Source of the DNA: Parafrankia sp. EUN1f
GTDB lineage: Bacteria > Actinomycetota > Actinomycetes > Frankiales > Frankiaceae
Reading direction: 5' to 3'
Assembly (NCBI RefSeq): GCF_000177675.1
Contig: NZ_ADGX01000028.1
Coordinates: 1 to 64,000, forward strand
Length of the DNA: 64,000 nt
Shown here: positions 1 to 15,433 of the stretch, one piece after another
Layout: each line of letters starts with the position of its first letter
How positions within the stretch are numbered: position 1 is the first letter of the stretch
Translations under genes and position numbers: made by a program
The notes under the pieces: model-generated
The model's database searches: none
The model's input: the letters and a program-made list of their open reading frames with translations, nothing else
Told to the model about the DNA's origin: nothing

Positions 1-449
1 CGTCCGGGAGAGCTACCGGCTCTCCCCCCCAGGTCGTGCTCTTCGACGGCGTCCGTGACCTGCTCACCGGCCTGCTCGACCGCGGGACACGCCTCGCCGT
101 CGCGACGGGTAAAAGCGGCCCACGGGCCCGTGACCTGCTGACCCAGCTCGGTATCGGTGACTGCTTCGTACGGGTCATCGGTTCCGACGAGGTCACCCAC
201 CCCAAACCGGCACCCGACATCGTCCACCGCGCCCTCGACGCACTCGACGCCGCACCGGACCAGGCCGTGATGGTCGGCGACGCGGTCACCGACATCCGCA
301 GCGCCCGATCAGCCGGGGTCCGTGCCATCGCCGCGATGTGGGGAGAGACCGACCAGGACGAGCTCCTGGCAGCGGCCCCGGACTGGGTGACCCACACCCC
401 GGCACAGCTACTCGGCCTACTCACAACACGCCCCTACCAGCCCGCCTGA
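1..449 (+). CDS. HAD-family phosphatase, C-terminal part (RifM position)
   Basis: Only the C-terminal part is inside the window. It shows the later HAD motifs: AVATGK (motif II, Thr), HPKPAPD (motif III, Lys) and VMVGDAVTDI (motif IV, acidic pair). The nucleophile DxD motif and the cap must lie left of the window. A phosphoglycolate-phosphatase-type fold is clear; the substrate is not. Because the neighbouring genes match the AHBA/kanosamine route, a RifM-like role is inferred. The reading frame is odd at the left edge. Bases 2-28 read naturally as VRESYRLSP in one frame, while the body starting VVLFDGVRDLL is in the next. The switch falls in a run of seven C at 24-30, and removing one C would join the two halves. 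It could be a true frameshift, a sequencing error or slippage. The gene runs towards the ROK kinase gene. Confidence 0.7.
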   Translation, partial: SGRATGSPPQVVLFDGVRDLLTGLLDRGTRLAVATGKSGPRARDLLTQLGIGDCFVRVIGSDEVTHPKPAPDIVHRALDALDAAPDQAVMVGDAVTDIRSARSAGVRAIAAMWGETDQDELLAAAPDWVTHTPAQLLGLLTTRPYQPA

Positions 450-509
450 AGCCCACGATCCCCGCCCGCAATCCGCGGCGTGGCCGTTGCTTCCGGGACC
501 GAGCTTCGG

Positions 510-559
510 GCTGCCGCTGCGGCTGCCGCTGCGGCTGCGGCTGCGGCTGCGGCTGCGGC
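510..559. repeat. CTGCGG/CTGCCG hexanucleotide repeat
   Basis: About eight near-perfect copies of a six-base unit lie in the convergent spacer between the HAD and ROK genes, just before palindromic element A. No coding role is evident. Confidence 0.8.
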
Positions 560-571
560 CAATGCTGCCCA

Positions 572-639
572 GCAAGAAGTGAGGATTTTGGCTGCTCAAG
601 CAACCGGGATCCTCATTTCTTGCGGACTGTCAGGTGCCG
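572..639. repeat. Dispersed palindromic element, copy A
   Basis: Left arm GCAAGAAGTGAGGAT (572-586) pairs with ATCCTCATTTCTTGC (609-623), 14 of 15 positions, around an imperfect inner stem. The sequence after the hairpin, TTGCGGACTGTCAGGTG, recurs almost unchanged after copy E near 57.6 kb, so the unit is longer than a plain terminator. It lies between converging genes and may end transcription in both directions. Confidence 0.8.
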
Positions 640-814
640 TTTGCCTTATTGGGGGGTGAAGTGCTGGCGCTGCGTGGCAGGGCGGGATCCCGCGATGGGG
701 CCGCCGCACGGCAGGTGTGCACGGACCGCCAGTCCACTGTCGGTGGCCCCGGATCCGTCCGCCGGGTCGGGGCTTTCACACCCGGGCGGGACATCGTCCG
801 GCGTGGCCGACCTG

Positions 815-1810
815 TCAGCCGGACGTCGGGTCCAGGGTGCGGGCCAGCAGCAGCGCGCCCGCCAGCGACGACAGGCCGCCGAGCTGGGCGGCCTGGACCG
901 GTACCGGGGGATGACCGGGCCGGGACAAGGCCCGGGTCCGCGCGGCGACCTCGTCGGCGAATCCCGCCAGCCCGTCGGCGAAGCCGCCGCCGATGACCGC
1001 GAGGTCGGGCCGCACCAGCTCGGTCAGACTGGCCACCGCGGCTGCCAGCGCCGCCGCGGTCATCCCGACCGCGGTACGGGCCCAGTCCGAACCCGCTTCC
1101 CAGGCCTCCCGCAGCTCCGGATAGTCCACATCGGAGGCTGCGGTGTCGGCGTCTGTGGTGCCCGAGGCTGCGGTGCCGGTGCCGGTGCCGGTGTCGGTGT
1201 CGGTGTCGTCGGTCGGGTGCCGGTTGTCCGCGCGCAGGTCACCGGCACGGCGCAGCGTGGCGGGTCCGGAGGCGAGGGCCTGCAGGCAGCCGCGGCGTCC
1301 GCATCGGCACAGCGGTCCGTCCAGGGCGATGATCAGATGCCCGATCTCGCAGGAACCGCGGGCCGGCCCGGGGCACAGGCGCCCGTCCAGCACGAGACCG
1401 CCGCCGATGCCCGTGCCGACCCCGAGGTAGACCAGGTTCGCTGCGCCCGCGTGCTCCGCCTCGGCCAGCGCGGCGAGATCGCCGTCGTCGGCGAGGGCCA
1501 CCGCCGCGCCGGGAACGAGGTTCCGCAGAGCCGGCCCGAGGTCCAGGCCGGTCCAGGACGGCCGGCTCGGCCAGGCCGTGACCCGTCCCTCGTGATCGAC
1601 TGTTGCCGGCATCGCCACGCCGATCGCGCCGACTGGCTCGCCCCGTCCGGAGCACAGCCCGGTGACCGCCTCGCCCAGGGCACGCAGGTCCGCTTCGGCG
1701 GTGGCCCCGGCCGCCCAGCGCAACACCGTCTCGCGCGGTGGCTGCCCGGCGACCTCGAGCCGCAGGGCCACCTTGGTGCCACCGACGTCGATGCCAAGCC
1801 GGCCGGTCAC
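815..1810 (-). CDS. ROK-family sugar kinase (kanosamine kinase candidate)
   Basis: A 331-residue ROK kinase. The phosphate-binding DVGGTK is at residues 8-13. The family zinc site appears as EIGH followed by CRCGRRGC (about 166-173); the usual Glu after the last Cys is Gln here. The GTG start at 1810 overlaps the stop of the preceding dehydrogenase gene by four bases (GTGA), so translation is probably coupled. ROK enzymes phosphorylate glucose, N-acetyl sugars or related sugars. In the rifamycin AHBA set the ROK protein RifN phosphorylates kanosamine, and the neighbouring RifG and RifI homologues make that the best inference. An Asp/Thr/Gly repeat of about 25 residues (about 200-228) interrupts the C-terminal half and is probably a surface loop. 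An ordinary glucokinase cannot be excluded. Confidence 0.8.
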   Translation of the reverse strand: MTGRLGIDVGGTKVALRLEVAGQPPRETVLRWAAGATAEADLRALGEAVTGLCSGRGEPVGAIGVAMPATVDHEGRVTAWPSRPSWTGLDLGPALRNLVPGAAVALADDGDLAALAEAEHAGAANLVYLGVGTGIGGGLVLDGRLCPGPARGSCEIGHLIIALDGPLCRCGRRGCLQALASGPATLRRAGDLRADNRHPTDDTDTDTGTGTGTAASGTTDADTAASDVDYPELREAWEAGSDWARTAVGMTAAALAAAVASLTELVRPDLAVIGGGFADGLAGFADEVAARTRALSRPGHPPVPVQAAQLGGLSSLAGALLLARTLDPTSG

Positions 1811-2715
1811 CGGGCACCGGGCAGGTCGAAGAAGGTCCGGTAGAGGTCGACCTGCTCCGCCAGCATGTGGATGCCCGGATGGGTCGGCAGGCCGCGTTCG
1901 TCCGCCGCCTGCAGCAGTCGGGTCCGGGCCGGCTTCATGATGATGTCCGCCACGACACAGCCCGCTGGCAGCGTCGCCGGGTCGAACGGGAGCGGGTCCT
2001 GCGGGCGCAGGCCCAGCGGTGTGGCGTTCACGATCAGATCGATCGTGCTCGCGGCGCCAGGCGCGCCCGGCCCTTCGGGTCGTGCCGCGGTGACCTGACC
2101 GGGCCAGTGCGGCTCGAGCCGGCCCAGCAGCTCGGCGACCCGGGCCTGGTCGGGGTCGACGACGGCCAGGCCGGCGCAGCCGGCTCCGAGCAGCGCGACG
2201 GCGATGGCGCTTCCGGCCCCGCCCGCACCGATCAGGCGCACGTTCGCGCCCGCGACGCGGTGCCCCGCCCGCCGCAGGCCCCGGACGAATCCGGAGCCGT
2301 CGAAGTTGTCGGCGAGCCACCGCCCGTCGGGCTCGCGCCGCAGCACGTTGGCGCTGCCGCTGATCTCGGCCGCGGGGGAGCGCAGGTCCGCCAGTGCCGC
2401 CGCGGCCACCTTGTGCGGAATCGTGATCAGGATGCCGTCCAGGTTGGCCATCGCACGCAGCCCGGCCAGCACGACGGGAAACTCCTCCGGTCGGGCGTGC
2501 ACCGGGACGAGGACGGCGTCCAGACCCACCTCGGCGAAGACGGGGTTCATCAGCATCGGCGCCTGGACCTGGGCGACCGGGTGACCGACGACGACGAACA
2601 GCCGGGTCGCCCCGGTGATCGTCCGCGGGAGCCGGTCGACCGCAGGTGTGTGGGCGGGCTGGGCCACCTGGGCGGGCTGGGCCACGTGGGTGGGCTGGGT
2701 CGTCACGCCGTGCAT
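1807..2715 (-). CDS. rifI: AroE/RifI-type shikimate (aminoquinate) dehydrogenase-like protein
   Basis: A 302-residue member of the shikimate dehydrogenase family. It has the substrate Lys in ITIPHK (about residue 97), NFDGSG (about 137) for the catalytic Asp, and a Rossmann GAGGAGSA motif. The N-terminal GHPVAQVQAP replaces the GxPxxHSxSP of true AroE; the canonical motif is present in the second aroE of this window (35422-36426). Loss of the HS pair fits the RifI-type subgroup of aminoshikimate clusters. The ATG at 2715 overlaps the end of the RifG homologue by 13 bases, and the gene ends inside the kinase start, so the three form one operon. RifI was reported as dispensable for AHBA supply in heterologous hosts, so its true substrate is open. 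The N-terminus has an Ala-Gln-Pro repeat. Confidence 0.75.
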   Translation of the reverse strand: MHGVTTQPTHVAQPAQVAQPAHTPAVDRLPRTITGATRLFVVVGHPVAQVQAPMLMNPVFAEVGLDAVLVPVHARPEEFPVVLAGLRAMANLDGILITIPHKVAAAALADLRSPAAEISGSANVLRREPDGRWLADNFDGSGFVRGLRRAGHRVAGANVRLIGAGGAGSAIAVALLGAGCAGLAVVDPDQARVAELLGRLEPHWPGQVTAARPEGPGAPGAASTIDLIVNATPLGLRPQDPLPFDPATLPAGCVVADIIMKPARTRLLQAADERGLPTHPGIHMLAEQVDLYRTFFDLPGAR

Positions 2716-3821
2716 CGTTCGCTCTCCCCGTCGCGGTCCCCGCCCCTGTCCTCGTGCCTGTCTCTGTCCTCGTGCCTGTCTCTGTCCCCGTCGCGGTCCA
2801 TCGCCTCCAGGGTGCTGACCACCACGTCCGGCGGGACGTCGGGAACCAGCCGGGGCCCGTCCGGCGAGTCCAGGACGAAGGTCAGGCCCGTGTTGGTCGA
2901 CTTCTTGTCGCGCCGCATGACCGTGACGAGATCGGCGATGTCGACATCCGCTGGCAGCGTGGTCGGGAGCCCGTAGTGCGCGACCACGTCCAGGTGCTCG
3001 GCGGCGCGCGCCTCGTCGATCAGGCCGAGTGCGGCGGCCAGCCGGCCGGCGAAGACCGTCCCGACGGCGACGCCCTCGCCGTGCCGCATCTCGAAGCCGG
3101 TGACGATCTCCAGCGCGTGTCCGAGCGTGTGCCCGTAGTTGAGGATGTGGCGCAGCCCGCCGTCGCGTTCGTCGCGGGCGACGATCGAGGCCTTGAGCGC
3201 CACGCTGCGGGCGATCTGCTCCGCGACCGGGAGTCCGCGCAGGTCGCCCGCGCCGATGAAGTGGGCCCGCGCGATCTCGCCGTAGCCGTTGGTCCATTCC
3301 CGGGCGGGCAGCGTGCGCAGGTGGTCGGTGTCGCACAGCACCGCGCTGGGCTGCCAGTAGGCACCCACCAGGTTCTTGCCGGCGGGCAGGTTCACCGCCG
3401 TCTTGCCGCCGACACTCGCGTCGACCTGCGCCAGCAACGACGTCGGCAGGTGGATCACCGCGATCCCGCGGTGGTAAAGGGCAGCCGCGAGGCCCACGAC
3501 ATCAGTGGTCGTGCCGCCGCCGCAGGAGACCACGGCATCTGAGCGGGTAAGGCCGAAGGAGGCGAATCCTTCGCAGAGCTCCTGGACATTGGCGAGAGTC
3601 TTTCCGTGTTCGCCGTCCCGTGCGGTGATCCGCAATGTCGGTACCCCGGGATCGGGAACCGCGTCCTGGTCGGGGCGGGCCGACACGACCGCGACCCGAG
3701 CCGCTCCGATCCGACTCACGGCGTCCGGCAGGAGCCGCCGGACGCCGGGGCCGATCTCGACCGGATATCCGCGCTCACCCAGGTCGACCCAGACCCGATG
3801 GGTCATGGGCGGTTCCGTCAT
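2703..3821 (-). CDS. rifG: Aminodehydroquinate synthase (RifG type)
   Basis: A 372-residue sugar-phosphate cyclase. It keeps GGGTTTD (101-107), SVGGKTAVN (136-144), GKNLVGA (148-154) and the metal-binding HTLGH (231-235). The family catalytic stretch reads GYGEIARAHF (179-188): the Glu is kept, but the Lys of dehydroquinate synthases (EVVK in the AroB of this window) is Arg185. From memory, RifG also has GEIAR here, and the surrounding sequence closely resembles RifG. The expected reaction is cyclisation of aminoDAHP to 5-deoxy-5-amino-3-dehydroquinate. The ATG at 3821 was chosen because GGGAGG lies just upstream; an ATG at 3806 is possible. The last 25 or so residues are an Asp/Arg/His repeat (DRDRHED units). 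It heads a three-gene operon and diverges from the adenylation gene. Confidence 0.82.
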   Translation of the reverse strand: MTEPPMTHRVWVDLGERGYPVEIGPGVRRLLPDAVSRIGAARVAVVSARPDQDAVPDPGVPTLRITARDGEHGKTLANVQELCEGFASFGLTRSDAVVSCGGGTTTDVVGLAAALYHRGIAVIHLPTSLLAQVDASVGGKTAVNLPAGKNLVGAYWQPSAVLCDTDHLRTLPAREWTNGYGEIARAHFIGAGDLRGLPVAEQIARSVALKASIVARDERDGGLRHILNYGHTLGHALEIVTGFEMRHGEGVAVGTVFAGRLAAALGLIDEARAAEHLDVVAHYGLPTTLPADVDIADLVTVMRRDKKSTNTGLTFVLDSPDGPRLVPDVPPDVVVSTLEAMDRDGDRDRHEDRDRHEDRGGDRDGESERCTA

Positions 3822-4025
3822 GGTCGTCCTCCCGATGCTCGATCGTCCAGGCGCGGACTGTCCTGGATCTGACAGGTCCCGGCCGGCCACCGCGAAGATT
3901 CACGAATGGGCCGCGCAGGTGCGTCGATGGTGGCACCAGTGGGTGAACGCGGATGTATCCGGGCCGTACGATCGGCGATGCTTCGAATAGCCGTGAACAG
4001 AGCAGATGGGCGGGGAAGCTGAGAA
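3822..4025. promoter_or_regulatory. Divergent promoter region, rifG operon versus A-T-TE gene
   Basis: A 204-base spacer between two divergent operons must hold both promoters. I see no convincing -35/-10 pair or operator. It is slightly less GC-rich towards the adenylation gene. Confidence 0.5.
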
Positions 4026-6806
4026 ATGGTGGGCACCCAGCCCTTGGTCATCCCGGCAGCCGGTCTCGAGGCGCCCTACCCGTCGATTGTGGCCCGATTC
4101 TCGCGAATCGTCGCGGCCCGTGCGGATGTGCTCGCGATATGTGATGACGAGACTGCGTTGACCTATGCCGACCTGGACTGGCGCTCGTCCGCGTTGGCCC
4201 GGCTGCTGGTCGGCCCCGGTGGTGTCGCGGCTGGCGCGGCTGGCGTGGATGGCGTCGCGAGCCCGGTCGGCATCCTGCTGGAACAGGGTGTTCCCGCGAC
4301 GGTCGCGATGCTCGGTGTGCTGAAGGCCGGCCGGCCGTTCGTCCCGCTGGACCCGGTGCTGCCGCCGGCGCGGCTCGGGCAGATCCTCGAGCTCGCCGGC
4401 GTCACCACCTGTCTGACGGACACCCGGCACCAGGGTCTTCTCGCCGCGGCCGGACCGGTCCAGGCCGTGCTCCTCGACGCCGCCGGAGCCGTCTGCGAGT
4501 GGGGAGCGGCGTCCGGCCCGGAGCCCGCCGCGGGCGACTCGGCGGCGGATTCGGTGGCGGATCCCGAGGCGAATTCGGGGGCGGTGTCGGAGGATCCGCT
4601 GCCGGGGTGGTTCGCACTGCCCGCGGATCCGGCCTTCGTCGTTTTCAGCTCCGGGTCCACCGGTGTCCCCAAAGGGGTCGTCTGGCGGAACCAGACTGTG
4701 CTGCACGAGCTGCGCGCCGGGATCGACGTGGTCGGCATGAACGCCACGGACCAGATCGCCCTGGTCCTGCCGGTCGCGTTCGCGGCCGGCATCACCGTCA
4801 TGTTCTGGGGGCTGCTGGTCGGCGCCACCCTGCACGCGCTCGACCCGCGCACCCGTGGGATCGCGGCGGTGCCCGGATGGCTGCTCGACCGCGGAATCAC
4901 CACACTGCATCTCACCCCGTCACTCATCCGGGCCCTGACCGGCGCCGCGGAGCCCCGGTGCGTCCTGGGCAGCCTGCGCGCGGTGACCAGCTCCGGCGAG
5001 GCCGTCTACGGCCGCGAGGTGGCCGCGCTGCGCGCGCATCTGCCCGCAACGTGCACGTTCTACAACTGGTCCGGCTCGACGGAGACCGCGTCCCTGGCAT
5101 TCTTTCCGGTGCGGTCCGTTGACGAGATTCCCACCGGGCCGCTGCCGGCGGGATGGGCCGTCGACGGCAAGGACATCGACATCGTCGACGAGGCCGGTGA
5201 ATCGCTGCCGGACGGCGCCGCCGGGCAGATGTCGGTCACCTCCCGCTACCTTTCCGGCGGGTACTGGAACGCGGCCGGGATGACCGCCGACCGTTTCCGT
5301 CCCGCCCGTGGCGACCTCGATTCCGGCGCGGCCGGGCCGATGGTCACCTACCGGGCCGGCGATCTCGCGCGGCGACGTTCCGACGGGTGCATCGAGCTGC
5401 TGGGCCGCGCCGACACCGCGGTGAAGATCCGCGGCTACCTGGTCGAGCCGGCCGAGATCGAAGCCGCGCTGCTGACCTCGCCGGACATCGTGGAGGCCGT
5501 GGTCGTGGCCCAGCGCCCGGCGGACCAGCCCCCGCGGCTGGTCGCCTACGTGGTGTGCGCCGGCACGGTCAAGGCGGCCGCGGTCATGGTCCGCGGCCTG
5601 CTGCGGGAGAAGCTGCCCGCATACATGGTGCCCGCCTCGGTGGTGCTGCTCAACGAGCTGCCCCGCAACGAGCGAGGCAAGATCGACCGGACGTCGCTGC
5701 CTGAGCCGCCGCCGCGGGCGCCGGGCCGCGCGCCGAACGACCGCAGCCATTGGGAGACCGCCGTGCGCGACCTGTTCGCGCAGACCCTCAAGGTTGACGA
5801 TGTCGGCCTCGACGACGATTTCGTCGAGCTCGGTGGTGACTCGCTGCTGGCCCAGCAGCTGCTGAGCGAGATCTCGGCCCGGCTGGGAGTGCGCCTGCCG
5901 ACCTCCGCCCTGGCGCAGGCACCCACCGTCGAGGCCCTGGCCGCGCGGGTCGCGGCGGCCCACCGGGCGCTGCCCACCCATCCGACCTGCGTCCCACTGA
6001 GCACCGAGGGGTCCGGGCCGCCGTTGTTCTGTGTCGCTGGTGCCGGGGGCCTCGCCATCAACTTCGTCACGCTCGCCCGCCGTCTCGGCACCGGCCGGCG
6101 CGTCTACGGCTTTCAGGCCCAGGGCCTGGAGAACCGGGCGTTCCCGGACTGGAGCGTCGAGCGTCATGCCCGCCGCCACATCGAGGTGCTCCGGCTGGTC
6201 CAGCCCGAGGGGCCCTACCACATCGTCGGATTCTCCTTCGGTGGCCTCGTCGCGCTGGAGATGGCCCACCTGCTCACGGACGCCGGGGCCGAGGTCGCCC
6301 TGCTGGCGCTGCTCGACAGCCGGCTGCCCCCGGCAGCACGCGGGGCCGGCGCCGATGCTGCCGCCACAGCCGACGCGAACGCGCTCGCGGCCGGTGCCCG
6401 CTCCCTGGCCGGCGCCGCGGTCGGCACCGTGGCCGGCACCGGCAGTCCCGAGGGCTCCCCGGCGCCGTGGAAGCGGCTGGTGCCCAGCGTGTCGAAGGTG
6501 CGCAAGGCAGCCCGCCTGCCGCTCACCGGTCTCGTCCGCTTCCCCGGCCTCTCCCAGTTCGACGCGTTCTTCGACCATGCCCGGGTCGTCAGTCGCTCCT
6601 ACCAGGTGCGCCCCTACGCCGGGCGCACCCTGCTCTACCTCGCCGAGGACAACAACGACACGGCACGGGACGGATGGAGCCGCCACCTGACCGGTGACAC
6701 CACCGTCGTCACGGTCCCCGGTGAGCACCACACGATGCTCAACGAGCCACACGCGGCGGCCCTCGCCGCGGACCTGCGCGCCCGCCTCGCGCCGATGCCG
6801 ACCTGA
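4026..6806 (+). CDS. Stand-alone NRPS-like protein: adenylation, thiolation, thioesterase
   Basis: A 926-residue single module. The adenylation domain (about 20-560) shows A3 FSSGSTGVPKG (about 205), A5 YNWSGSTETAS (about 344), A7 YRAGDLARR (about 441), A8 GRADTAVKIRGY and A10 NERGKIDR (about 547, with the catalytic Lys). The carrier domain has LGGDSL with phosphopantetheine Ser at about 606. The thioesterase has GFSFGG (Ser about 737), LLDSR (Asp) and EHHTM (His about 901). In the A4 region (LPVAFAAGITVMF) I find no Asp where amino-acid-activating domains bind the alpha-amine. This suggests an aryl, keto or hydroxy acid instead of a standard amino acid. There is no condensation domain, so the product is probably released by hydrolysis or by self-condensation or transfer in the TE. 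AHBA or a relative is a guess from context. Residues about 165-195 are a low-complexity loop. Confidence 0.88.
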   Translation: MVGTQPLVIPAAGLEAPYPSIVARFSRIVAARADVLAICDDETALTYADLDWRSSALARLLVGPGGVAAGAAGVDGVASPVGILLEQGVPATVAMLGVLKAGRPFVPLDPVLPPARLGQILELAGVTTCLTDTRHQGLLAAAGPVQAVLLDAAGAVCEWGAASGPEPAAGDSAADSVADPEANSGAVSEDPLPGWFALPADPAFVVFSSGSTGVPKGVVWRNQTVLHELRAGIDVVGMNATDQIALVLPVAFAAGITVMFWGLLVGATLHALDPRTRGIAAVPGWLLDRGITTLHLTPSLIRALTGAAEPRCVLGSLRAVTSSGEAVYGREVAALRAHLPATCTFYNWSGSTETASLAFFPVRSVDEIPTGPLPAGWAVDGKDIDIVDEAGESLPDGAAGQMSVTSRYLSGGYWNAAGMTADRFRPARGDLDSGAAGPMVTYRAGDLARRRSDGCIELLGRADTAVKIRGYLVEPAEIEAALLTSPDIVEAVVVAQRPADQPPRLVAYVVCAGTVKAAAVMVRGLLREKLPAYMVPASVVLLNELPRNERGKIDRTSLPEPPPRAPGRAPNDRSHWETAVRDLFAQTLKVDDVGLDDDFVELGGDSLLAQQLLSEISARLGVRLPTSALAQAPTVEALAARVAAAHRALPTHPTCVPLSTEGSGPPLFCVAGAGGLAINFVTLARRLGTGRRVYGFQAQGLENRAFPDWSVERHARRHIEVLRLVQPEGPYHIVGFSFGGLVALEMAHLLTDAGAEVALLALLDSRLPPAARGAGADAAATADANALAAGARSLAGAAVGTVAGTGSPEGSPAPWKRLVPSVSKVRKAARLPLTGLVRFPGLSQFDAFFDHARVVSRSYQVRPYAGRTLLYLAEDNNDTARDGWSRHLTGDTTVVTVPGEHHTMLNEPHAAALAADLRARLAPMPT

Positions 6807-6845
6807 CCTGATCGCCACCTCCGCCCGGGCTGAGTCGGGGAGCCC

Positions 6846-8936
6846 GTGGACCGGGCCCGGGGGAGGCGGCGATGGGACGGCGTGGGCGGCATAGTGTCTG
6901 GCGTCGTGCTTCCTTCGCAACGGTCCGTTCTGCCCACCCGGGTGACCAGGCTGCACGCCCAGGTGGTCGCGCGGCTGACCGGCGCCGGGGAAGCCGCGCG
7001 GAGCCTGGCGTTCTTCGCCGACCAGGGCCGTGTCGTCACCGCCCTGGTCGGTCTGTCGGTCATCGGCTCGGTGGCGGTCGCGGCGGGCCCGTTCCTGCTG
7101 CGTCATCTGATCGACCGGTCCCTGCCCACCGGCCGGATCGAGGACCTGGTCGCCCCGGTGCTGCTGCTGTGCCTGCTACTGGTGTTCGAATCGGCGGTAC
7201 TGGCGACCCGGATGGCGCTGATCGCCAGGCTCGGCGCGGTGATCACGGTGCGGATGCGGCAGGCTGTCAACGCACGCCTGCAGCACCTTCCGTTCGGCTT
7301 CTTCCCGCGCAGCCAGCAGGGCGAGGTCATGACGGTGATGTCCACCGATGTGGTCTCCGCGCAGTACGCGATCTCGGCGATCGTGCAGGCGGTCGTCTGC
7401 CGGGTGGCGGACATCGCCGTCGGCCTGACCGTCGTGTTCGTGCTCGACTGGCGTCTCAGCCTCGCGGTGATGGTGTTCGCCCCGGCCACGCTGCTGATCA
7501 TGAAGGCGGGCCGGCGGCGTCTCGCGGTGCTGTCCCAGCGCCAGCGTGAGCTCGACGGCCAGCTGATGGCCCAGGTGGCGGACACCTCGTCCGTCTCGGG
7601 TGCCCTGCACGTCCGGCTGTTCGACCGGGCCGACTACGAGTGCGCCCGGTTCGAGGAGGCTGGCGAGGCCCTGCTGGCGGCGGCACGGGAACAGGCCCGG
7701 CTGACCTCCCGGGTACGGCTCGTGGTCAACCTCGGCATCGTCGCGACGATGATCGTCGTCGTCGCCCTGGGTGCCTGGCTGGTGTCGACCGGACGCACCA
7801 CGCTCGGCACCGTCGCGGCGCTCGGTGGTGCCCTGCTGGTCTCCTTCGGGCCGCTGGCGTCGGCGGTCGAGCTGAAGTCGGAGCTGTCGTCGGCCGGAGC
7901 CTCCTTCCGGCGGATCTTCGCCCTGCTCGACCTCCCCACCGACGGCGAGCCCGCCGGCATCGATCACAACGGCAGCAATCACAACAGCAGCAAACACAAC
8001 GGCAGCCTTCACCCTGGCAGTCTTCCCGCCGGCAGCCTTCCCGCGGGCGGAGCGCCCACCGCCCGTGCGGTGCCGCGGGCGGGAACGGTGGCCCGGGTCG
8101 TCGCCCGTGGGCCTGAGCCGGCGCGGCCGCAGACGAGGGCCCAGGCCCTTGACCTCAGCCTGGACGACGTCTGGTTCTCCTACGACCGGGCGACGCCGGA
8201 CCCCGACGGCGCTGCCTCCGGCCGCGCTGTGCCCGGTCAGGCGTCCGAGTATGAAGAGTGGAACCTGCGGGGTGTCACGTTGCGGGCGGCGGCCGGCACG
8301 ACCACGGCCGTCGTCGGCGCGAGCGGTGCCGGCAAGACGACCATCACCTATCTCGCGAGCGGCATCCACCGGTCCCAGCGCGGAAACGTCCGGCTCGGCG
8401 GGCGGGATCTGGCCGAGATGCCCGCCGCCGAGCTGCACGCGCTGGTCGGCGTCGTCCCGCAGGACCCGCACCTGTTCCATGACACCATCGCCGCCAACCT
8501 GCGCTACGGCAGGCTCGACGCCACCGATGACGAGCTGCGCGAGGCACTGGACGCGGCGCATCTCTCGGCACTGCTCGACCGCCTTCCCGACGGCCTGGCG
8601 ACCCGGGTCGGTGCCCGCGGCTACCGGCTTTCCGGAGGGGAGCGGCAACGGCTCGCCATCGCCCGGGTGCTGCTTCAGGCACCGCGGGTGCTGGTGCTCG
8701 ACGAGGCCACCTCCGCGCTGGACACGGTCTCCGAGGCGGCCGTGCGGGCCGCGCTCGACCGGCTTGCCATCGGCCGGACCTGCCTGGTGATCGCGCACCG
8801 CCTCTCCACGGTCCGCGACGCCGACCGCATCTACGTCATGGACCACGGCCGGGTCGTCGAGGAAGGCACCCACGGTGGGCTGCTCGCCGACGGCGGCGCC
8901 TACTCGCGGCTATACGGAGCGGTCGGCGCCGGCTGA
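6846..8936 (+). CDS. ABC exporter, fused membrane and ATPase domains
   Basis: About 696 residues in half-transporter layout: a six-helix membrane domain (about 55-360), then an ATPase domain. The ATPase has Walker A GASGAGKTT (about 490), Q-loop VVPQD, signature LSGGERQR, Walker B VLVLDEATSALD and H-loop IAHRLST. A His/Asn/Ser/Gly and Pro/Gly-rich linker (about 376-405) separates the domains and contains short repeats. It probably acts as a homodimer exporting the product of the adjacent cluster or a lipid-linked intermediate. The GTG at 6846 gives the longest frame; GTG codons at 6897 and 6906 are also plausible because the first 20 residues are Arg-rich and unlike the family. It follows the A-T-TE gene by 39 bases in the same direction, and its last 27 bases overlap the converging regulator gene. 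Confidence 0.88.
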   Translation: MDRARGRRRWDGVGGIVSGVVLPSQRSVLPTRVTRLHAQVVARLTGAGEAARSLAFFADQGRVVTALVGLSVIGSVAVAAGPFLLRHLIDRSLPTGRIEDLVAPVLLLCLLLVFESAVLATRMALIARLGAVITVRMRQAVNARLQHLPFGFFPRSQQGEVMTVMSTDVVSAQYAISAIVQAVVCRVADIAVGLTVVFVLDWRLSLAVMVFAPATLLIMKAGRRRLAVLSQRQRELDGQLMAQVADTSSVSGALHVRLFDRADYECARFEEAGEALLAAAREQARLTSRVRLVVNLGIVATMIVVVALGAWLVSTGRTTLGTVAALGGALLVSFGPLASAVELKSELSSAGASFRRIFALLDLPTDGEPAGIDHNGSNHNSSKHNGSLHPGSLPAGSLPAGGAPTARAVPRAGTVARVVARGPEPARPQTRAQALDLSLDDVWFSYDRATPDPDGAASGRAVPGQASEYEEWNLRGVTLRAAAGTTTAVVGASGAGKTTITYLASGIHRSQRGNVRLGGRDLAEMPAAELHALVGVVPQDPHLFHDTIAANLRYGRLDATDDELREALDAAHLSALLDRLPDGLATRVGARGYRLSGGERQRLAIARVLLQAPRVLVLDEATSALDTVSEAAVRAALDRLAIGRTCLVIAHRLSTVRDADRIYVMDHGRVVEEGTHGGLLADGGAYSRLYGAVGAG

Positions 8937-9647
8937 CTCGCCATGTGCTGGCCTGTCTGACCTGTCCGGGTCTGGCGCACCGTGGGCCGGCGCACCGTGG
9001 GCCGGCTCGCCGCGGGCTGGCTCGCCGTGGGCCGAGGACGCCCTCGCCGGCCGGGCCCGGACGTGCAGGCGCTCGCCCTGCGGCCCGAAGATGCTGATCG
9101 CCTCCACCGGGCCGGGCCCCGGATTGCTGAAAGCGTGCGGGAGGTGGGTGTCGAACTCCGCCACCTCACCGGCCGTCAGCACGACGGTCTGGCTGCCCAG
9201 AGTCAGCCGCAGCCGCCCGGCGAGCACGTAGACCCACTCGTATCCCTCGTGGCTCTGCGGCTCCTCCGCGCAGACGGGCCACCCCGCCGGAATGATCATT
9301 TTGAATGCCTGCAGCCCGCCGGGGCGCCTGGTCAGCGGGACGAAGGCGAGCCCGGCCCGCTCGACCGGCCGGGGCAGCACCCGGGGGTCCGCGCCGGGAC
9401 GAAATCCGATCAGTTCGTCCAGAGGGGTCTGGTAGGCACGGGCAAGCGGAAGCAGCAGTTCCAGTGTGAGCCGGCGCTGGCCGGACTCCAGACGGGACAG
9501 CGTGCTGACCGAGATGCCGGTGCTGCGCGACACCTCGGGGAGTGTCCGGCCGCGCTGCCTGCGCAGCGCGCGCAGGCGTGGCCCCACGGCGGCGAGGACC
9601 AGGTTCACATCCTGTTCCTGTTCCGGTTCCGGGCTCTCGGGGGGCAC
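8910..9647 (-). CDS. XRE-family regulator with C-terminal cupin domain
   Basis: A 245-residue protein. The N-terminal helix-turn-helix (about 20-75) contains RLRALRRQRGRTLPEVSRSTGISVSTLSRLESGQR. The cupin domain (about 105-190) contains SHEGYEWVYVLAGRLRLTLG and the closing HLPHAFSNPG. Such regulators bind a small ligand in the cupin and often control metabolite or transport genes. The last 40 or so residues are a repeat rich in His-Gly-Glu/Ala-Pro that overlaps the end of the ABC gene on the other strand. The GTG at 9647 gives the longest frame; a GTG 14 codons further in is possible. It may control the adenylation/exporter operon, but no operator was identified. Confidence 0.85.
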   Translation of the reverse strand: MPPESPEPEQEQDVNLVLAAVGPRLRALRRQRGRTLPEVSRSTGISVSTLSRLESGQRRLTLELLLPLARAYQTPLDELIGFRPGADPRVLPRPVERAGLAFVPLTRRPGGLQAFKMIIPAGWPVCAEEPQSHEGYEWVYVLAGRLRLTLGSQTVVLTAGEVAEFDTHLPHAFSNPGPGPVEAISIFGPQGERLHVRARPARASSAHGEPARGEPAHGAPAHGAPDPDRSDRPAHGESAGADRSV

Positions 9648-10184
9648 ACCCCATTCTGACCGCGGACGAGGTGCGTGAAGCGGCCGCGATCCCGGCGCGG
9701 TCGGCCCGGTGTTCCTCGGCCGCCGCCGTGGCGCGGATCACGATGCCTGGTGGCGCCCAGGTGCCCCGGCCGGCGCGGCGCGGGCCGGTGGGAGCCAAGG
9801 GTGTGCGACAGGTAGCGGATAGTGTTCTCCGGTGGCGCCGGTGGTGGCCCTGCGGCGGCTGGGGGAATGGTTCCGCCCCCGGTTGGATGCGGCGGTCCCG
9901 GCGGTCAAGTGGGGCCGCCGAACACGGCGCCGCGCTGCGTCGTTCTTCCTTGCGGCGGCGTGTTCGGCCGGCGCCGCAATGGGTGCGTCCAGGCTTGTTT
10001 CGAATACGGAGCGGAGAATTTCCAGGGAAGCCCTCCGGACCTTCTACAAGCGAGTAGATGTACCCGTCCCTAACGTCAGGGTATTGACGTGGGATTGGTG
10101 GTGGGTGCCGATCGATAGCCCAGGCATCGGTACTACCATGAGCCTCCCGGAGATACATGGCCTGACGGTCGCCTGGAGTTGTGC
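9648..10184. other. Spacer without a recognisable gene
   Basis: A spacer of 537 bases between the XRE-cupin regulator and the glycosyltransferase. One plus-strand frame from a GTG near 9832 stays open into the glycosyltransferase gene and would begin with a basic, partly hydrophobic peptide. It matches nothing I know and ends inside the next gene, so I do not call it. GC content drops over the last 200 bases, as expected for a promoter region. Confidence 0.5.
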
Positions 10185-11420
10185 ATGCGGATTGCTTTTT
10201 TGTGCGAGCAGTACCCACCAGTCATCTGGGATGGTGCCGGTGTGTATACGCACGACATCGCGCACGCGTTGGCGCGGCGGGGGCACGAGGTTCATGTGCT
10301 GTGCACGCAGGGGCGCGCTGTTCGTGATGATGTCTTCGACGGCGTGCACGTTCATCGCCGTCCGTTGCTGCGGGCGCCGGTAACGCGCTACCTCGGGCCC
10401 GCCGCAAAACTGATCACCGGTCGGGACCACCCGCGGGATTCGTTGTCGCTGCGGGCCTCACTGGCCGTGTCGTACGGGTTCTGGCTGCGCCAGAGCGGGA
10501 TCAGGCCCGACGTCATCGAGACCCAGGACGGCGAGACACGCGGTCTGTTCACCGCGCTGGGCCGGCGTACCCCGCTGGTGATCCACCTCCACACGCCCAC
10601 GATGATGGACGTCCGGATGCGTGATCCGGAGCTGACCCGCAAGGGTGAGATCGCGGACAGGGTCGACCGGTTCTCGGCGCTGCGCGCCGACGCGCGGACC
10701 TCGCCGTCGCAGCTTCTCGTCGACACACTGCGCGACCTCGACTGGCTGCGGCCGGACACCGACGTCGACGTGATTCCGTACCCGTTCGAGAACGCGTCGT
10801 TCGCCGAGGTTCCGACGGCGGAGCACACCGGGCCCAACCTCGTGGTCGTGGGGCGCCTGGAATGGCGCAAGGGCCTCGACGTGCTGCTCGACGCGGCGTC
10901 CCGCCTGCAGAAGCGGGGAATCGACGCCAAGGTCATCTTCGTCGGGAAGTCGTCCGGCCGGGTCGACGGCGTCGAGACCGGGACCTGGCTGGAGCGCAGG
11001 GCTGCTGAGCTGGGCGTTCCGGTCCGCTTCGACGGCCACGTGGCGCGCACCGATCTCCCCGGCCTCTACGGGGAGGCGCGCGTGGTCGTGGTGCCGAGCC
11101 GGTTCGAGAGCTTCTCCATCGCGGGGCTGGAGGGTATGGCCTCCGCGCGCCCGGTGGTCGCCACCGCGACGACCGGCGTCTCGACCTGGGTGGCCCGCTG
11201 GAACGGCGGCGCCGTCGTGCCGCCGGAGAATCCGGACGCGATGGCCGATGCGTTGGAGCCGTTCCTGACAGACGCAGCTCACGCGGCCACGGTCGGTCTG
11301 CGCGGGCGGGCGGGCACCGCCGAACTCAACCCCGACGTCATCGCGGCACGCCGCGAGGAGGTATACCTCAAGGCAATCGCTCGTCACCAGGTTCACGGTC
11401 CGACCCGAGGCCGCGGCTAG
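10185..11420 (+). CDS. GT4-family glycosyltransferase
   Basis: A 411-residue GT-B enzyme. The N-terminal acceptor domain starts MRIAFLCEQYPP and has the G-rich loop DGAGVYTHDIAHAL. The C-terminal donor domain has VVVGRLEWRKGLDVLL and the GT4 E-x7-E motif in PSRFESFSIAGLEGMA. It uses a nucleotide sugar; donor and acceptor are not visible. The next gene makes UDP-xylose, so xylosyl or another pentosyl transfer is possible. The ATG at 10185 has a GGAG-type ribosome site just upstream. Whether it belongs to the metabolite cluster or to cell-envelope glycan synthesis is undecided. Confidence 0.88.
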   Translation: MRIAFLCEQYPPVIWDGAGVYTHDIAHALARRGHEVHVLCTQGRAVRDDVFDGVHVHRRPLLRAPVTRYLGPAAKLITGRDHPRDSLSLRASLAVSYGFWLRQSGIRPDVIETQDGETRGLFTALGRRTPLVIHLHTPTMMDVRMRDPELTRKGEIADRVDRFSALRADARTSPSQLLVDTLRDLDWLRPDTDVDVIPYPFENASFAEVPTAEHTGPNLVVVGRLEWRKGLDVLLDAASRLQKRGIDAKVIFVGKSSGRVDGVETGTWLERRAAELGVPVRFDGHVARTDLPGLYGEARVVVVPSRFESFSIAGLEGMASARPVVATATTGVSTWVARWNGGAVVPPENPDAMADALEPFLTDAAHAATVGLRGRAGTAELNPDVIAARREEVYLKAIARHQVHGPTRGRG

Positions 11421-11540
11421 AGCGTCTCGTGGTTCGGGCCCACCGGACGCCCCGCTGCTGTGGCTGACTGGTGACTGGCAGTAGGTGCCAGGCAGTCCGT
11501 CGGAATTTGTTTGAGTAGACAGTACTGGGGGTTTTCGGTT

Positions 11541-12524
11541 ATGCGTGTCGTCGTCGCGGGAGGCGCGGGCTTTCTTGGAAGTCATCTGTGTGATCGGCTG
11601 CTTGACGACGGTGAGGAAGTCGTCTGCGTCGACAACTACCTGACCGGCAGGAAGAACAACATCGAGCACCTGCTCGGCCGGCCCGGCTTCGAGCTGCTTG
11701 AGCAGGATGTCTCCGAGCAGATGACCGTGCCGGGTACGGTCGACGCAATCCTGGAGTTCGCGTCGCCGGCGTCGCCGCTCGACTACGCGAGATATCCCAT
11801 CGAGACGCTGAAGGCGGGTTCGCACGGCACCCTCCACGCCCTGGACCTCGCTCGCAGCAAGGGCGCGCGTTTCCTGCTCGCCTCCACCTCGGAGGTCTAC
11901 GGCGACCCGTTGGTGCACCCGCAGGAGGAGTCCTACTGGGGGCACGTCAACCCGATCGGGCCGCGCAGCATGTACGACGAGGCGAAGCGTTTCGCCGAGG
12001 CCCTGACCACCGCGTACCGCAATCGGCACGGGATCGACACGGCGATCATCCGGATTTTCAACACCTACGGCCCGCGGATGCGGACCGATGACGGCCGGGC
12101 CATTCCCGCGTTCGTCTCGCAGGCCCTGCGCGGTGAGCCCGTCACGGTGGCCGGGGACGGTATGCAGACTCGTTCGGTCTGTTACGTCGACGACCTCGTC
12201 GAAGGCATCGTGCGGATGCTGCGCAGCGGTCTGCCCGGTCCCGTGAACCTCGGTAACCCGCATGAGATGTCCATCATCGACACCGCTCGGCTCGTGGTCG
12301 AGCTCATCGGCGCCGACGTGCCCATCAAGTTCATTCCCCGGCCCGGTGACGACCCCATGGTGCGTCGGCCGGACATCACCCTCGCGCGGCGGCAGCTCGA
12401 CTGGGAGCCGGTGATCGACGTGCGTGACGGTCTGCTGCGGACCATCGAATGGTTCGCGAGCGAGCTCGGCGCCGGCCCCGTGCCGGGGGCCGCTGCCGGT
12501 GCCGCTGTGGCGCCCGTGGCCTGA
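11541..12524 (+). CDS. UDP-glucuronate decarboxylase (UDP-xylose synthase)
   Basis: A 327-residue short-chain dehydrogenase-type sugar nucleotide enzyme. It has the NAD-binding [10 protein letters not shown] at the N-terminus, [10 protein letters not shown], and the catalytic YDEAK with RFAEAL. The combination of [16 protein letters not shown], the YxxxK context and a family-sized length matches UXS enzymes, which convert UDP-glucuronate to UDP-xylose via a 4-keto intermediate. A dTDP-glucose 4,6-dehydratase-like role is less likely. The ATG at 11541 has GGGGG about seven bases upstream. It lies 120 bases after the glycosyltransferase, in the same direction. The C-terminal 20 residues are Ala/Gly/Pro-rich. 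Confidence 0.85.
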
Positions 12525-12666
12525 GACGAGGCCTTCGAACGGCGGGCTTGGCGGGGTCGCCGGGGTCGGGCGGGCCGGGGTCGGGCCCGCCGGTGGCGGT
12601 TGCCAGCCAGTGACCGTTGCCACCCGGTCCTGGCGCTGGGGTCGCCTGACCGTGGGGCGGCTGAAC

Positions 12667-12713
12667 GGGTAGGCAGCCGGCCGGTGTCGTCAGCGCGGGC
12701 CTGCTGCCTACCC
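12667..12713. terminator. Hairpin downstream of the UDP-xylose synthase gene
   Basis: Perfect ten-base arms GGGTAGGCAG and CTGCCTACCC are separated by 27 bases, which also contain GGCCGGCC. No T-run follows, as is usual in high-GC actinomycetes. It probably ends the glycosyltransferase/UXS transcript. Confidence 0.5.
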
Positions 12714-12812
12714 GGACCCATCACCCGGCCACCCACCGGGCATCCCGCACCGCCGCGAAGCGCCAGCAATCGTTGCAAGCGGCGCAAAAGGGATGCAGAG
12801 CCGCTTGGCAAT

Positions 12813-12866
12813 CCGCAAGAGTGAAGGATTCTGGTTGTCGGAACGACCAAGATCCTTCACTCTTCG
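12813..12866. repeat. Dispersed palindromic element, copy B
   Basis: Left arm CCGCAAGAGTGAAGGAT and right arm ATCCTTCACTCTTCGG are almost fully complementary, with an inner TGGTTGT/ACGACCA stem. It shares the core layout (G)AGGAT-n-TGG...CGACCA-n-ATCC(T) with copies A, C, D and E. Confidence 0.8.
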
Positions 12867-13375
12867 GCTCGCCCATTCGGGCCGCCGCGTTCGTGGGCCG
12901 AGCCGCGTTCGTGGAGTGCGAGCCGTGTGAACCTCACCCGCACGAACGGCTAACGATCTTTATCGGTGCTGTTCTGCGCTGTTCTGCGACTGTGAGACCG
13001 GCCGCTTCGGCCACGCGCGGCGACGGAGAAAATCGTGGTTGGCCGGTCGGACGAACGTCGGACCCAGCCTCCGGCCCCAGCACGGAAGCAGTCTGACCCA
13101 CCCCACGTAGCCCCGCGGGTCACCATGCCGCCAGGTGACAAGCTCCACGCCGTCGGCCGCCACCGCCGCTCCGAGAGCGCCTCGCCCACGTTACCGCCAC
13201 CGCCCGCGCTCAGTCTCCAGGGCCCGCGCGACAGCCCCGCCACGCGGCCCAGCCGGCCGGCCGGCCATCCAGACCAATCCGACGACCTCCGGGCAAAACG
13301 CGATCATGTAAGGGCCCTGGGCACTCCAGGTGGCGGGTTTTCCACGGTTCTCTTTGCCAAATGTTTTCTACGTCT
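12867..13375. other. Spacer without a recognisable gene
   Basis: About 500 bases between palindromic element B and the end of the Crp/Fnr gene. The 13-base unit GCCGCGTTCGTGG occurs twice near 12890-12915. Open frames here look like GC-rich accidents. Just left of the regulator gene the sequence becomes T-rich on the plus strand (around 13335-13375). Confidence 0.5.
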
Positions 13376-14092
13376 TCAGCTTCCGGACCCACCGGGTCGA
13401 TTGTTGTTTCCGAAAGCCACTCGTTCGAGGCCCTCGAGGTCCAGGACGATGACCCGTCGGTAGCCGACGTCCACGACCTGCATGTTCCGTAGCTCGGCGA
13501 GCGCACGGTTGACCGATCGCTCGTCGGCGGCGACCAGTGCCGCGAGCTCGGGCTGGCTCAGACCGACGGCGAGCTGTACCCCGCGGGCGGCGGGCCGACC
13601 CCAGAGGGTGGCCAGCTCGATGAGCACCCGGGCGAGGCGGCCACGGACGGAGCCGTCGACATGCTCCACCCTGCGCCGGATCGAGTTGCGCAGCTTGTTC
13701 GCGACCAGCTCGGCGACCGCGAAAGCGGCGGGCGGATTCTGTTCGAGGAACGATCGAAAGGCTGCGGCGCTCATCGCCCGACCCACCACGGGGCCGGCTG
13801 CCGTGGCGGTTCCGGTGTGAGTGTCCTGCTCCATCGCGCTGATCTCGCCCAGGATGTCACCCCGTGACCTGATGACCAGGAAGGCGAGCCTGTTCTCCTC
13901 GCCGTTGGCGGTGATCTTCACGAAGCCGTCCAGAATCAGGATGACCTCGCCGTATGGCTCGGCCTCCCGCATCAGCATCTCACCGTGTGGGTAGTGGCGT
14001 ATCCCACCGAGGGCGAGAAGCTGCTGGCGCAGCGCCGGGTTCAGCCGGGCGGGCAGGGTGCCCGGCGGAAAGGGTCGAGAATCCTCAGGCAA
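13376..14092 (-). CDS. Crp/Fnr-family transcription regulator
   Basis: A 238-residue protein. The N-terminal cyclic-nucleotide-type beta-barrel (about 20-130) contains GEVILILDGFVKI and GDILGEISAM. The C-terminal winged helix has GLSQPELAALVAADERSVNRALAEL as the recognition region. I do not see the Cys pattern of an FNR iron-sulfur cluster. The start is a TTG at 14092, supported by a near-consensus ribosome site AAAGGAGG seven bases upstream. It is transcribed away from the copper genes from a shared 318-base spacer, so it could influence them. The signal it senses is unknown. Confidence 0.88.
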   Translation of the reverse strand: MPEDSRPFPPGTLPARLNPALRQQLLALGGIRHYPHGEMLMREAEPYGEVILILDGFVKITANGEENRLAFLVIRSRGDILGEISAMEQDTHTGTATAAGPVVGRAMSAAAFRSFLEQNPPAAFAVAELVANKLRNSIRRRVEHVDGSVRGRLARVLIELATLWGRPAARGVQLAVGLSQPELAALVAADERSVNRALAELRNMQVVDVGYRRVIVLDLEGLERVAFGNNNRPGGSGS

Positions 14093-14346
14093 AGGAATGC
14101 CCTCCTTTGACCCCGGGCCTCCGTGCCCGGAACGTCGGAGGTTCCTATTGTCGTTCGCCGGGGGCCCGGGCGTCCTGTGTTAGTACCGAGCGGGACAGTG
14201 CGTTGTCCTTTCCCTGCCGGCCGGAACCTGCCGCGATGCCGCTTCCGGCGCAGCCCGGCCGCCCGGCGGGCACGGCGGCCGGAGCGCCCGAGGCGCCGTC
14301 CGAAGGTGTGAGAGTGCCGCCACCGATCCGCGCGTATCGTTGACCT

Positions 14347-14363
14347 ATACCCCCTGGGGGTAT
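14347..14363. promoter_or_regulatory. CsoR-type copper operator candidate
   Basis: ATACCCCCTGGGGGTAT is a perfect 8+1+8 inverted repeat. It has the form of operators bound by CsoR/DUF156 repressors (A/T-rich ends flanking C-run and G-run). It lies 47 bases before the start of a His-rich protein gene that precedes a copper ATPase gene. No csoR gene is in the window, so the repressor would act from elsewhere. Confidence 0.7.
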
Positions 14364-14410
14364 GTACCGTACGGACGAGTAGTTCGCTAACCCGCGCGAA
14401 GGGACGCACG

Positions 14411-15433
14411 ATGAACGCTATGACCCGGATCGGCGGGTTCGGCCTCGCGTTGGCTGTGCTCTTCGGTGTCTCCTATGTGGTCGGGACGACGATCGGACCG
14501 TCGCAGGACTCGGCGGGGCCAGCCGGCGGCGCCGGTCAGGGGATCTCCGCCGGGGCGGGGGGCGCCGCGGGCGGCACCGGCGACGGTGCGGCCGCCGCGG
14601 ATGGCCTGGCCATCTCCGCCGGCGGCTACACGCTCGATCCCGATGAGCTCACCTGGCCCGCCGGGCGCTCGAGTGCCTACAAGTTCCGCATCCTCGGTGC
14701 CGACGGCCGACCCGTGACGGCCTTCACCCGCGCCCACGACGCCGACCTCCACCTGATCGTCGTCCGGCGGGATCTCACCGGCTACCAGCACCTGCACCCG
14801 ACCCGTGACGCCGCCGGAACGTGGAGCGTCCCGCTCCGGCTGGCCGCGGCGGGCGTCTACCGGGTGTTCGTGGACTTCGTCCCGGCGTCGACGGGAACCG
14901 GGAGCCACACCGGAGCGACGAACGGGATCACGCTGGGTGCCGACCTCACTGTGGCCGGCGACCTTCGTCCCGCTGTACTCCCCGAGCTGACACGTAATGT
15001 GACGCTGGCGGGCGGTTACAGCGTGACGATGCAGGGGCGGGTGGAGTCGGGTGAATCGAGCACCCTCGCCTTCACGGTCGCGCACAACGGGCGGCCGGTC
15101 ACCGATCTTGAAACGTACCTCGGCGCGCTCGGTCATCTGGTGGTGATCCGCCAGGGTGATCTCGCCTACCTGCACGTACATCCGGGCGACGGAGGCAGCG
15201 AAAACGACGGCGACGGCCATGTCCACGCCGACGGTGCGACGGCCGCGGCGGACGAAAGCCCGGAGCTGTCCTTCGCGACGCGGTTTCCGTCGGCCGGCTC
15301 CTACCGGCTCTACCTCGACTTCAAGCATGGCGGGCAGGTACGTACCGCCGAGATCACGATGGACGTCGCGGCGGGCCGGACCACCAGCCCGACCCGGCCC
15401 GCGGGAACAGCCACGCCAGCGCACGTGCACTGA
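14411..15433 (+). CDS. Membrane-anchored His-rich protein of copper locus
   Basis: A 340-residue protein. The N-terminal hydrophobic segment GGFGLALAVLFGVSYVVGTTIG (about 8-29) looks like an uncleaved anchor; there is no lipobox Cys. A Gly/Ala-rich linker follows, then two similar beta-sandwich-like units. Unit one contains ADLHLIVVRRDLTGYQHLHP and unit two LGHLVVIRQGDLAYLHVHPGD; both are followed by sequence ending YRVFVDF or YRLYLDF. The HLHP/HVHP stretches and a later GHVHADG suggest metal binding, probably copper, outside the membrane. The family resembles uncharacterised actinobacterial proteins next to copper ATPases. GAAGGGA lies ahead of the ATG. It follows the CsoR-type palindrome and precedes copA by 42 bases, so it is likely copper-induced. 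Confidence 0.72.
   Translation: MNAMTRIGGFGLALAVLFGVSYVVGTTIGPSQDSAGPAGGAGQGISAGAGGAAGGTGDGAAAADGLAISAGGYTLDPDELTWPAGRSSAYKFRILGADGRPVTAFTRAHDADLHLIVVRRDLTGYQHLHPTRDAAGTWSVPLRLAAAGVYRVFVDFVPASTGTGSHTGATNGITLGADLTVAGDLRPAVLPELTRNVTLAGGYSVTMQGRVESGESSTLAFTVAHNGRPVTDLETYLGALGHLVVIRQGDLAYLHVHPGDGGSENDGDGHVHADGATAAADESPELSFATRFPSAGSYRLYLDFKHGGQVRTAEITMDVAAGRTTSPTRPAGTATPAHVH

What the first reader, a model, noticed from the sequence alone, without database searches (positions are those of the whole stretch)
1..3821. Aminoshikimate (AHBA-type) gene set
Four genes match RifM, RifN, RifI and RifG by family and by grouping, while a full housekeeping aroE-aroC-aroK-aroB set sits at 35-40 kb. Seen: motifs and three overlapping genes. 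Known: these families make kanosamine 6-phosphate and aminodehydroquinate in ansamycin and mitomycin producers. Inferred: the organism makes AHBA or a relative, with RifK, RifH, RifJ and RifL homologues left of the window. The neighbourhood shows no polyketide synthase, so the end product may be new.
Basis: partly seen in the sequence, partly recalled or inferred. Interest (0 to 1): 0.75.

Follow-up and report, generated by a model that had tools for sequence, protein, structure and literature searches.

The report
Lineage-wide PKS-free AHBA pathway in Frankia
These genes belong to a pathway that makes 3-amino-5-hydroxybenzoic acid, the starter of antibiotics such as rifamycin; every examined Frankia and Parafrankia (root-nodule bacterium) genome carries the set without the usual antibiotic assembly line beside it, so what these symbionts use it for is an open and testable question.

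Summary
Window 1-3821 holds the end of a RifM phosphatase, a RifN-type kinase, a RifI-type dehydrogenase and a RifG-type cyclase. The window starts at a contig break inside rifM. In the 97%-identical relative G003, and in all six Parafrankia genomes, the set continues as rifM-rifL-rifK|rifJ. The AHBA synthase is close to the solved RifK (E 3e-128), and the cyclase groups with RifG, not AroB.

RifK and RifG occur in 19/19 Frankia and Parafrankia genomes and in 0/16 other Frankiaceae, with the same gene order in every locus read and no PKS beside it. (2) 13 of the 19 genomes, three of them single-contig, have no AHBA-priming PKS anywhere. Four Parafrankia, including the window's genome, do have one on another contig, which weakens 'no PKS, so a new product' for this strain. 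(3) No dedicated aminoDAHP synthase (RifH) exists; one class II DAHP synthase must serve both pathways. (4) In Parafrankia the neighbour is a single-module A-T-TE enzyme (4026-6806), usually with an ABC exporter; a paralogue lies next to a duplicated rifKLM block. The product is unknown. New variant of a known kind.

The parts
3..449 (+). RifM-type HAD phosphatase (UDP-kanosamine phosphatase), C-terminal 148 aa; 5' part cut by the contig start
   Evidence: TIGR01454 169 bits over 131/205 positions; orthologues full length in relatives
815..1810 (-). RifN-type ROK kinase (kanosamine kinase), GTG start at 1810
   Evidence: PF00480 1.4e-36; start; syntenic in 17 other loci
1807..2715 (-). RifI-type aminoshikimate/aminoquinate dehydrogenase (AroE family)
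   Evidence: PF08501 1.5e-15, all aroE equivalogs below cut-off; start
2703..3821 (-). RifG-type aminodehydroquinate synthase
   Evidence: PF01761/PF24621; tree with RifG of ansamycin loci, AroB separate at 100
4026..6806 (+). Single-module NRPS-like A-T-TE protein (926 aa), divergent from rifG; candidate user or partner of AHBA
   Evidence: PF00501, PF13193, PF00550, PF00975; conserved next to the set in 6/6 Parafrankia; A-domain signature AATHTSWSLK
6846..8936 (+). ABC transporter (fused permease and ATPase), candidate exporter
   Evidence: PF00664, PF00005; present in 5 of 6 Parafrankia loci
8910..9647 (-). XRE-type HTH regulator with cupin domain
   Evidence: PF01381/PF13560 and PF07883; present in 6/6 Parafrankia loci

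Best explanation
The genes are part of a complete aminoshikimate pathway to AHBA that is a lineage trait of Frankia and Parafrankia. Inferred steps: RifL and RifK turn UDP-glucose into UDP-kanosamine, RifM frees kanosamine, RifN phosphorylates it; isomerase and transketolase give iminoerythrose 4-phosphate; the single class II DAHP synthase (no RifH exists) makes aminoDAHP; RifG and RifJ give aminodehydroshikimate; RifK aromatises it to AHBA; RifI handles the aminoshikimate/aminoquinate side branch. No ansamycin PKS is attached. In Parafrankia the most likely direct user is the divergent A-T-TE enzyme, which loads a non-alpha-amino carboxylic acid (AHBA itself, or an acyl group to be joined to AHBA) and releases an AHBA amide, ester or oligomer that the ABC transporter exports; this last part is about even odds. 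In the four Parafrankia that also carry an AHBA-primed PKS with its own rifKLM, that PKS must draw RifG, and probably RifN and RifJ, from this set. Shown here: gene content, order, phylogeny, distribution. Inferred: chemistry and product.
For: RifK: E 3e-128 to AHBA synthase 1b9h over residues 10-256, the PLP-lysine stretch FSFQNGKLMTAGEGG intact. Complete rifJ|rifK-L-M|rifN-I-G in G003 and four further Parafrankia and in 12 Frankia loci. RifK in 13/13 Frankia-genus and 6/6 Parafrankia genomes; RifG in the same 19 and in none of 16 other Frankiaceae. Frankia plus Parafrankia RifG are one clade (99) inside the RifG group, AroB outside (100). No KS or AT motif in the fetched core loci. AHBA-priming A-PKS in only 6 of 35 genomes. 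One DAHP synthase per genome. A-T-TE adjacent in 6/6 Parafrankia with an invariant A-domain signature; a second A-T-TE lies 217 bp from a rifM that matches the window's copy in all 449 aligned bases but one gap. dN/dS 0.15-0.47 for these genes against G003.
Against: In Frankia the set has no A-T-TE neighbour, and related A-T-TE enzymes with similar signatures occur in genus g7, which lacks AHBA genes; so the A-T-TE substrate may not be AHBA. No enzyme was assayed. The core rifL, the 5' part of rifM and the 3' half of rifK are missing from the window's own assembly and are inferred from relatives. Whether a housekeeping DAHP synthase accepts iminoerythrose 4-phosphate is untested here.
Confidence: 0.8

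Rival explanations
1. The set simply supplies starter units for an ansamycin made by the AHBA-priming PKS on another contig; the A-T-TE gene is an unrelated neighbour.
For: C347 carries rifK2-rifL2-rifM2-[A-ACP-KS-AT-DH-KR]. In G002 the PKS ends with an amide-synthase-like NAT gene. These genomes have one RifG each, in the core set. A Frankia sp. EAN1pec NAT was already listed among putative amide synthases (PMC2764864).
Against: G003, G005 and 11 of 13 Frankia genomes keep the complete set and have no AHBA-priming PKS by the same search, three of them single-contig genomes. The PKS-linked RifK belongs to a different clade.
Confidence: 0.3
2. The pathway's valued product is kanosamine, aminoshikimate or aminoquinate rather than AHBA.
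For: RifK, L and M alone suffice for kanosamine (PMC8788734), and the rifKLM block was duplicated on its own next to a second A-T-TE. RifI is conserved in the core loci.
Against: RifG and RifJ, needed only beyond kanosamine, are kept in every core locus read, and RifK is closest to AHBA synthases.
Confidence: 0.15
3. The cyclase set is a second ordinary shikimate or aminocyclitol (EEVS, DOI) gene group.
For: Family-level Pfam hits are shared with AroB and AroE.
Against: AHBA synthase present; tree separates the cyclase from AroB at 100; PDB scores fall from AroB (1e-59) to DOI synthase (3e-34) and a 4p53-type cyclase (7e-28); the equivalog cut-off for AroB is failed.
Confidence: 0.02

Closest known systems
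rif AHBA sub-cluster (rifGHIKLMN and rifJ) of Amycolatopsis mediterranei
   Same: RifG, I, J, K, L, M, N homologues, clustered; RifK close to the solved AHBA synthase
   Different: No RifH anywhere in the genome; no PKS attached; order rifJ|rifK-L-M|rifN-I-G conserved across two genera as a lineage trait
Mitomycin / FR-900482 AHBA pathways
   Same: AHBA made without a modular PKS user (from the literature, PMC8788734)
   Different: No MitE, MmcB or MitB set recognised beside the genes; a fused A-T-TE instead (Parafrankia) or nothing (Frankia)
AHBA-primed ansamycin PKS clusters (second locus in four Parafrankia; Saccharopolyspora hirsuta, Actinoalloteichus and Streptomyces loci)
   Same: RifK, L and M homologues; RifG 66-71% identical
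   Different: Those loci carry A-KS loading modules near rifM; the core set does not, and its RifK is a separate clade from the Parafrankia PKS-linked copies
Single-module A-T-TE synthetases (bacterial and fungal arylpyruvate-dimerising type, from own knowledge)
   Same: Domain order A-T-TE; no Asp at A-domain position 235
   Different: Coupled to an AHBA gene set; substrate unknown

Membership tests
AHBA (aminoshikimate) biosynthetic set | AHBA synthase (RifK) encoded | tested here: met
   E 3e-128 to 1b9h/1b9i; full-length 87-100% orthologues in the genus
AHBA (aminoshikimate) biosynthetic set | RifG-type aminoDHQ synthase distinct from AroB | tested here: met
   Tree; below the AroB equivalog cut-off while own AroB passes
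AHBA (aminoshikimate) biosynthetic set | RifL, RifM, RifN for kanosamine 6-phosphate | tested here: met
   G003 and other relatives; core rifL itself is in an assembly gap of the window's genome
AHBA (aminoshikimate) biosynthetic set | RifJ aminoDHQ dehydratase next to RifK | tested here: met
   C228 (L023:1111-1542), type II DHQ dehydratase; 12 Frankia and 5 Parafrankia loci
AHBA (aminoshikimate) biosynthetic set | Dedicated aminoDAHP synthase (RifH) | tested here: not met
   One class II DAHP synthase per genome, no class I enzyme in the six Parafrankia. Not treated as essential: several ansamycin loci here also lack one within about 10 kb
Ansamycin biosynthetic cluster | AHBA-priming modular PKS in the cluster | tested here: not met
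   No KS or AT motif in the window or the core loci; PKS on another contig in 4 of 6 Parafrankia
Ansamycin biosynthetic cluster | Amide synthase (RifF, NAT family) in the cluster | not tested
   Not searched systematically; seen only at the separate PKS locus of G002
Mitomycin-type cluster | MitE, MmcB and MitB homologues | not tested
   None recognised by Pfam among the genes tested in window 1-9647; no dedicated search
A-T-TE synthetase | A, T and TE domains with intact A3, A10, Ser-T and Ser/His TE motifs | tested here: met
A-T-TE synthetase | Activates AHBA | not testable with these tools
   Signature AATHTSWSLK argues against a typical alpha-amino acid but does not name the acid

The most novel reading that the evidence does not exclude
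AHBA is a conserved non-ansamycin metabolite of actinorhizal symbionts: Frankia lineages 1 and 3 keep a complete PKS-free aminoshikimate pathway that feeds an unknown small molecule, made in Parafrankia by an A-T-TE synthetase, with a possible role in the plant symbiosis; and one DAHP synthase makes both DAHP and aminoDAHP.
Probability: 0.45. Interest if true: 0.8.

Novelty: new variant of a known kind. Interest (0 to 1): 0.62.

Why it matters
AHBA is known as a building block of scattered antibiotics (ansamycins, mitomycins). A complete pathway kept in every examined Frankia and Parafrankia genome, including the 5.4 Mb one, without its usual PKS points to a conserved metabolite nobody appears to have named in the papers held here. 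It is directly testable by metabolite profiling and gene removal. It also gives genomes in which a single DAHP synthase must supply both the shikimate and the aminoshikimate pathway, a clean case for that enzymatic question.

Tried and rejected
GlnR boxes between rifJ and rifK, tried because the Frankia set lies near amtB-glnK-glnD and GlnR activates rifK in Amycolatopsis (PMC8788734): no match in most of the 17 intergenic regions, scattered one-mismatch hits only in the others; rejected. A neighbouring tailoring gene shared by Frankia and Parafrankia: none beyond the set itself. Contamination as source of the second rifKLM-A-T-TE copy: its rifM matches the window's copy in all 449 aligned bases but one gap, while other Parafrankia apart from G003 differ by 22% or more at the protein level, so a true duplication with repeat collapse is preferred, though a chimeric contig is not excluded. 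The key non-open papers (Udwary 2011 on Frankia natural products, Wang 2013 on AHBA genes) are not held, so priority could not be checked. EEVS and DOI synthases were compared by PDB search score only, not in the tree.

Full report
Observation. Window 1-3821 carries the C-terminal part of a RifM-type phosphatase (3-449 +), a ROK kinase (815-1810 -), a shikimate-dehydrogenase-like gene (1807-2715 -) and a DHQ-synthase-like gene (2703-3821 -); the last three overlap. The window begins exactly at the start of contig C369 of a 9.35 Mb, 396-contig draft, which is why rifM is cut. The housekeeping aroE-aroC-aroK-aroB set at 35.4-40.1 kb is real.

Organism. The six genomes of the same genus include Parafrankia soli NRRL B-16219: its contig NZ_MAXA01000047.1 has the same length, 150151, as G004:C47. 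The window is therefore Parafrankia.

The missing left side. In G003, whose RifG is 97% identical, the locus reads A-T-TE | rifG-rifI-rifN | rifM-rifL-rifK | rifJ on one contig, and the other four relatives agree. In the window's own genome rifK and rifJ are on contig C228, and a second rifK N-terminus, 99% identical over 770 bp, starts contig C259. Contig C236 ends in a rifM that matches the window's copy in all 449 aligned bases except one gap, directly followed on the same strand by a second A-T-TE gene. C228, C259, C236 and C369 all end inside rifK or rifM, the pattern of a two-copy rifK-L-M repeat that the assembler could not resolve; the middle of the repeat, including the core rifL, is absent from the assembly. 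Pairing C259 with C236 is an inference.

AHBA synthase and cyclase. The RifK fragment matches the solved AHBA synthase with E 3e-128. RifG-type proteins of Frankia and Parafrankia form one clade (support 99) within RifG proteins of AHBA loci of other actinobacteria; the Parafrankia AroB proteins are separate at 100.

Distribution. RifK (E <= 1e-130) is in 6/6 Parafrankia, 13/13 genomes of genus g2, and 5 of about 360 other genomes sampled from the class. RifG is in exactly the same 19 Frankiaceae and in none of the other 16. G006 (7,497,934 bp) and G008 (5,433,628 bp) have the sizes of F. alni ACN14a and F. casuarinae CcI3 (own knowledge), so g2 is taken to be Frankia. Genus g7, without the set, matches lineage-4 strains by size and contig number: BMG5.36 11.20 Mb/280 contigs and NRRL B-16386 9.43 Mb/174 contigs (PMC5391423) against G032 and G027. 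So lineages 1 and 3 have the set and the non-infective lineage 4 does not. Genus g4, perhaps lineage 2, also lacks it; if so, the set is not a general requirement of nodulation.

PKS. In the 12 Frankia loci read, the set has the same seven genes in the same order and no KS or AT motif in the fetched stretch. A search with the AHBA-priming A domain finds such a PKS in four Parafrankia, including this genome (C347), and two Frankia; 13 of the 19 AHBA genomes have none. The PKS loci of Parafrankia carry their own rifK2-L2-M2 but no rifG was found beside them; G001, G002 and G004 have one RifG each, in the core set, so the core set must serve them. In G002 the PKS is followed by a NAT-family amide-synthase-like gene. 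The PKS-linked RifK proteins are a separate clade from the core. The simplest reading is that the core set is ancestral and the PKS cluster an addition in some strains.

No RifH. All six Parafrankia have one class II DAHP synthase and no class I enzyme, and the same single class II gene holds for the family apart from an extra weak fragment in G022. In C213 it lies beside a phosphofructokinase-like gene (named from its sequence, not by a family scan). Three of the other AHBA loci examined have a class II DAHP synthase close by (L048, L143, L146), others do not.

A-T-TE. The 926-aa protein at 4026-6806 has adenylation, carrier and thioesterase domains with intact motifs. It is next to rifG in all six Parafrankia; the ABC transporter in five, the XRE-cupin regulator in six. 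The second copy (68-72% identical; closest to the G005 protein) adjacent to a duplicated rifKLM block is the strongest argument for a functional link to the pathway. Against it: relatives at 45-48% identity occur in Frankia away from the AHBA set and in genus g7 without any AHBA genes, with signatures AAT(Q/H)TCWSLK in most. The acid activated may therefore be something common to the family, with AHBA (or kanosamine) as the acceptor.

Literature. PMC searches for Frankia with AHBA, ansamycin, 3-amino-5-hydroxybenzo- and kanosamine found no description of this set. One 2008 review lists a Frankia EAN1pec NAT among putative amide synthases. Two likely relevant subscription papers could not be read.

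Verdict. AHBA biosynthesis is supported as strongly as sequence allows. The interest lies in its lineage-wide, PKS-free occurrence and in the A-T-TE partner, not in a new enzyme family.

Noticed in passing
L097 (G000:C347:40000-59496), 7712-19496: Second AHBA locus of this genome: rifK2-rifL2-rifM2 and an AHBA-priming modular PKS running off the contig; homologues in G001, G002, G004. In G002 an amide-synthase-like NAT gene closes the PKS (L155:2013-2864).
   Followed up: partly
L102 (G000:C332:34000-47757), 7970-8326: A 118-codon remnant matching the last 71 residues of RifG (62%), beside a macrolide-type glycosyltransferase-like gene and oxidoreductase genes.
   Followed up: no
L098 7799-11150 (contig C236) and L022 1-781 (contig C259): Duplicated rifK-L-M block with a second A-T-TE gene; repeat collapse explains four contig ends.
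   Followed up: partly
L128-L140 and L147 (Frankia loci): In Frankia the AHBA set lies a few kb from amtB-glnK-glnD, an iron-dependent DtxR-type repressor gene and a MarR gene.
   Followed up: partly
L103, L104 and L081-L094: A-T-TE relatives with signatures close to AAT(Q/H)TCWSLK in Frankia and genus g7, in L103 and L104 near exonuclease-III-like and small heat-shock-protein-like genes; function unknown.
   Followed up: partly
L051, L052, L054 (Streptomyces and Streptosporangium): RifG (68-70%) with more distant RifM and RifL but no RifK in the fetched stretch: perhaps a different aminoshikimate-like pathway.
   Followed up: no
35 Frankiaceae genomes: Essentially one class II DAHP synthase gene per genome across the family (G022 has one extra weak fragment); class I tested absent only in the six Parafrankia.
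   Followed up: partly
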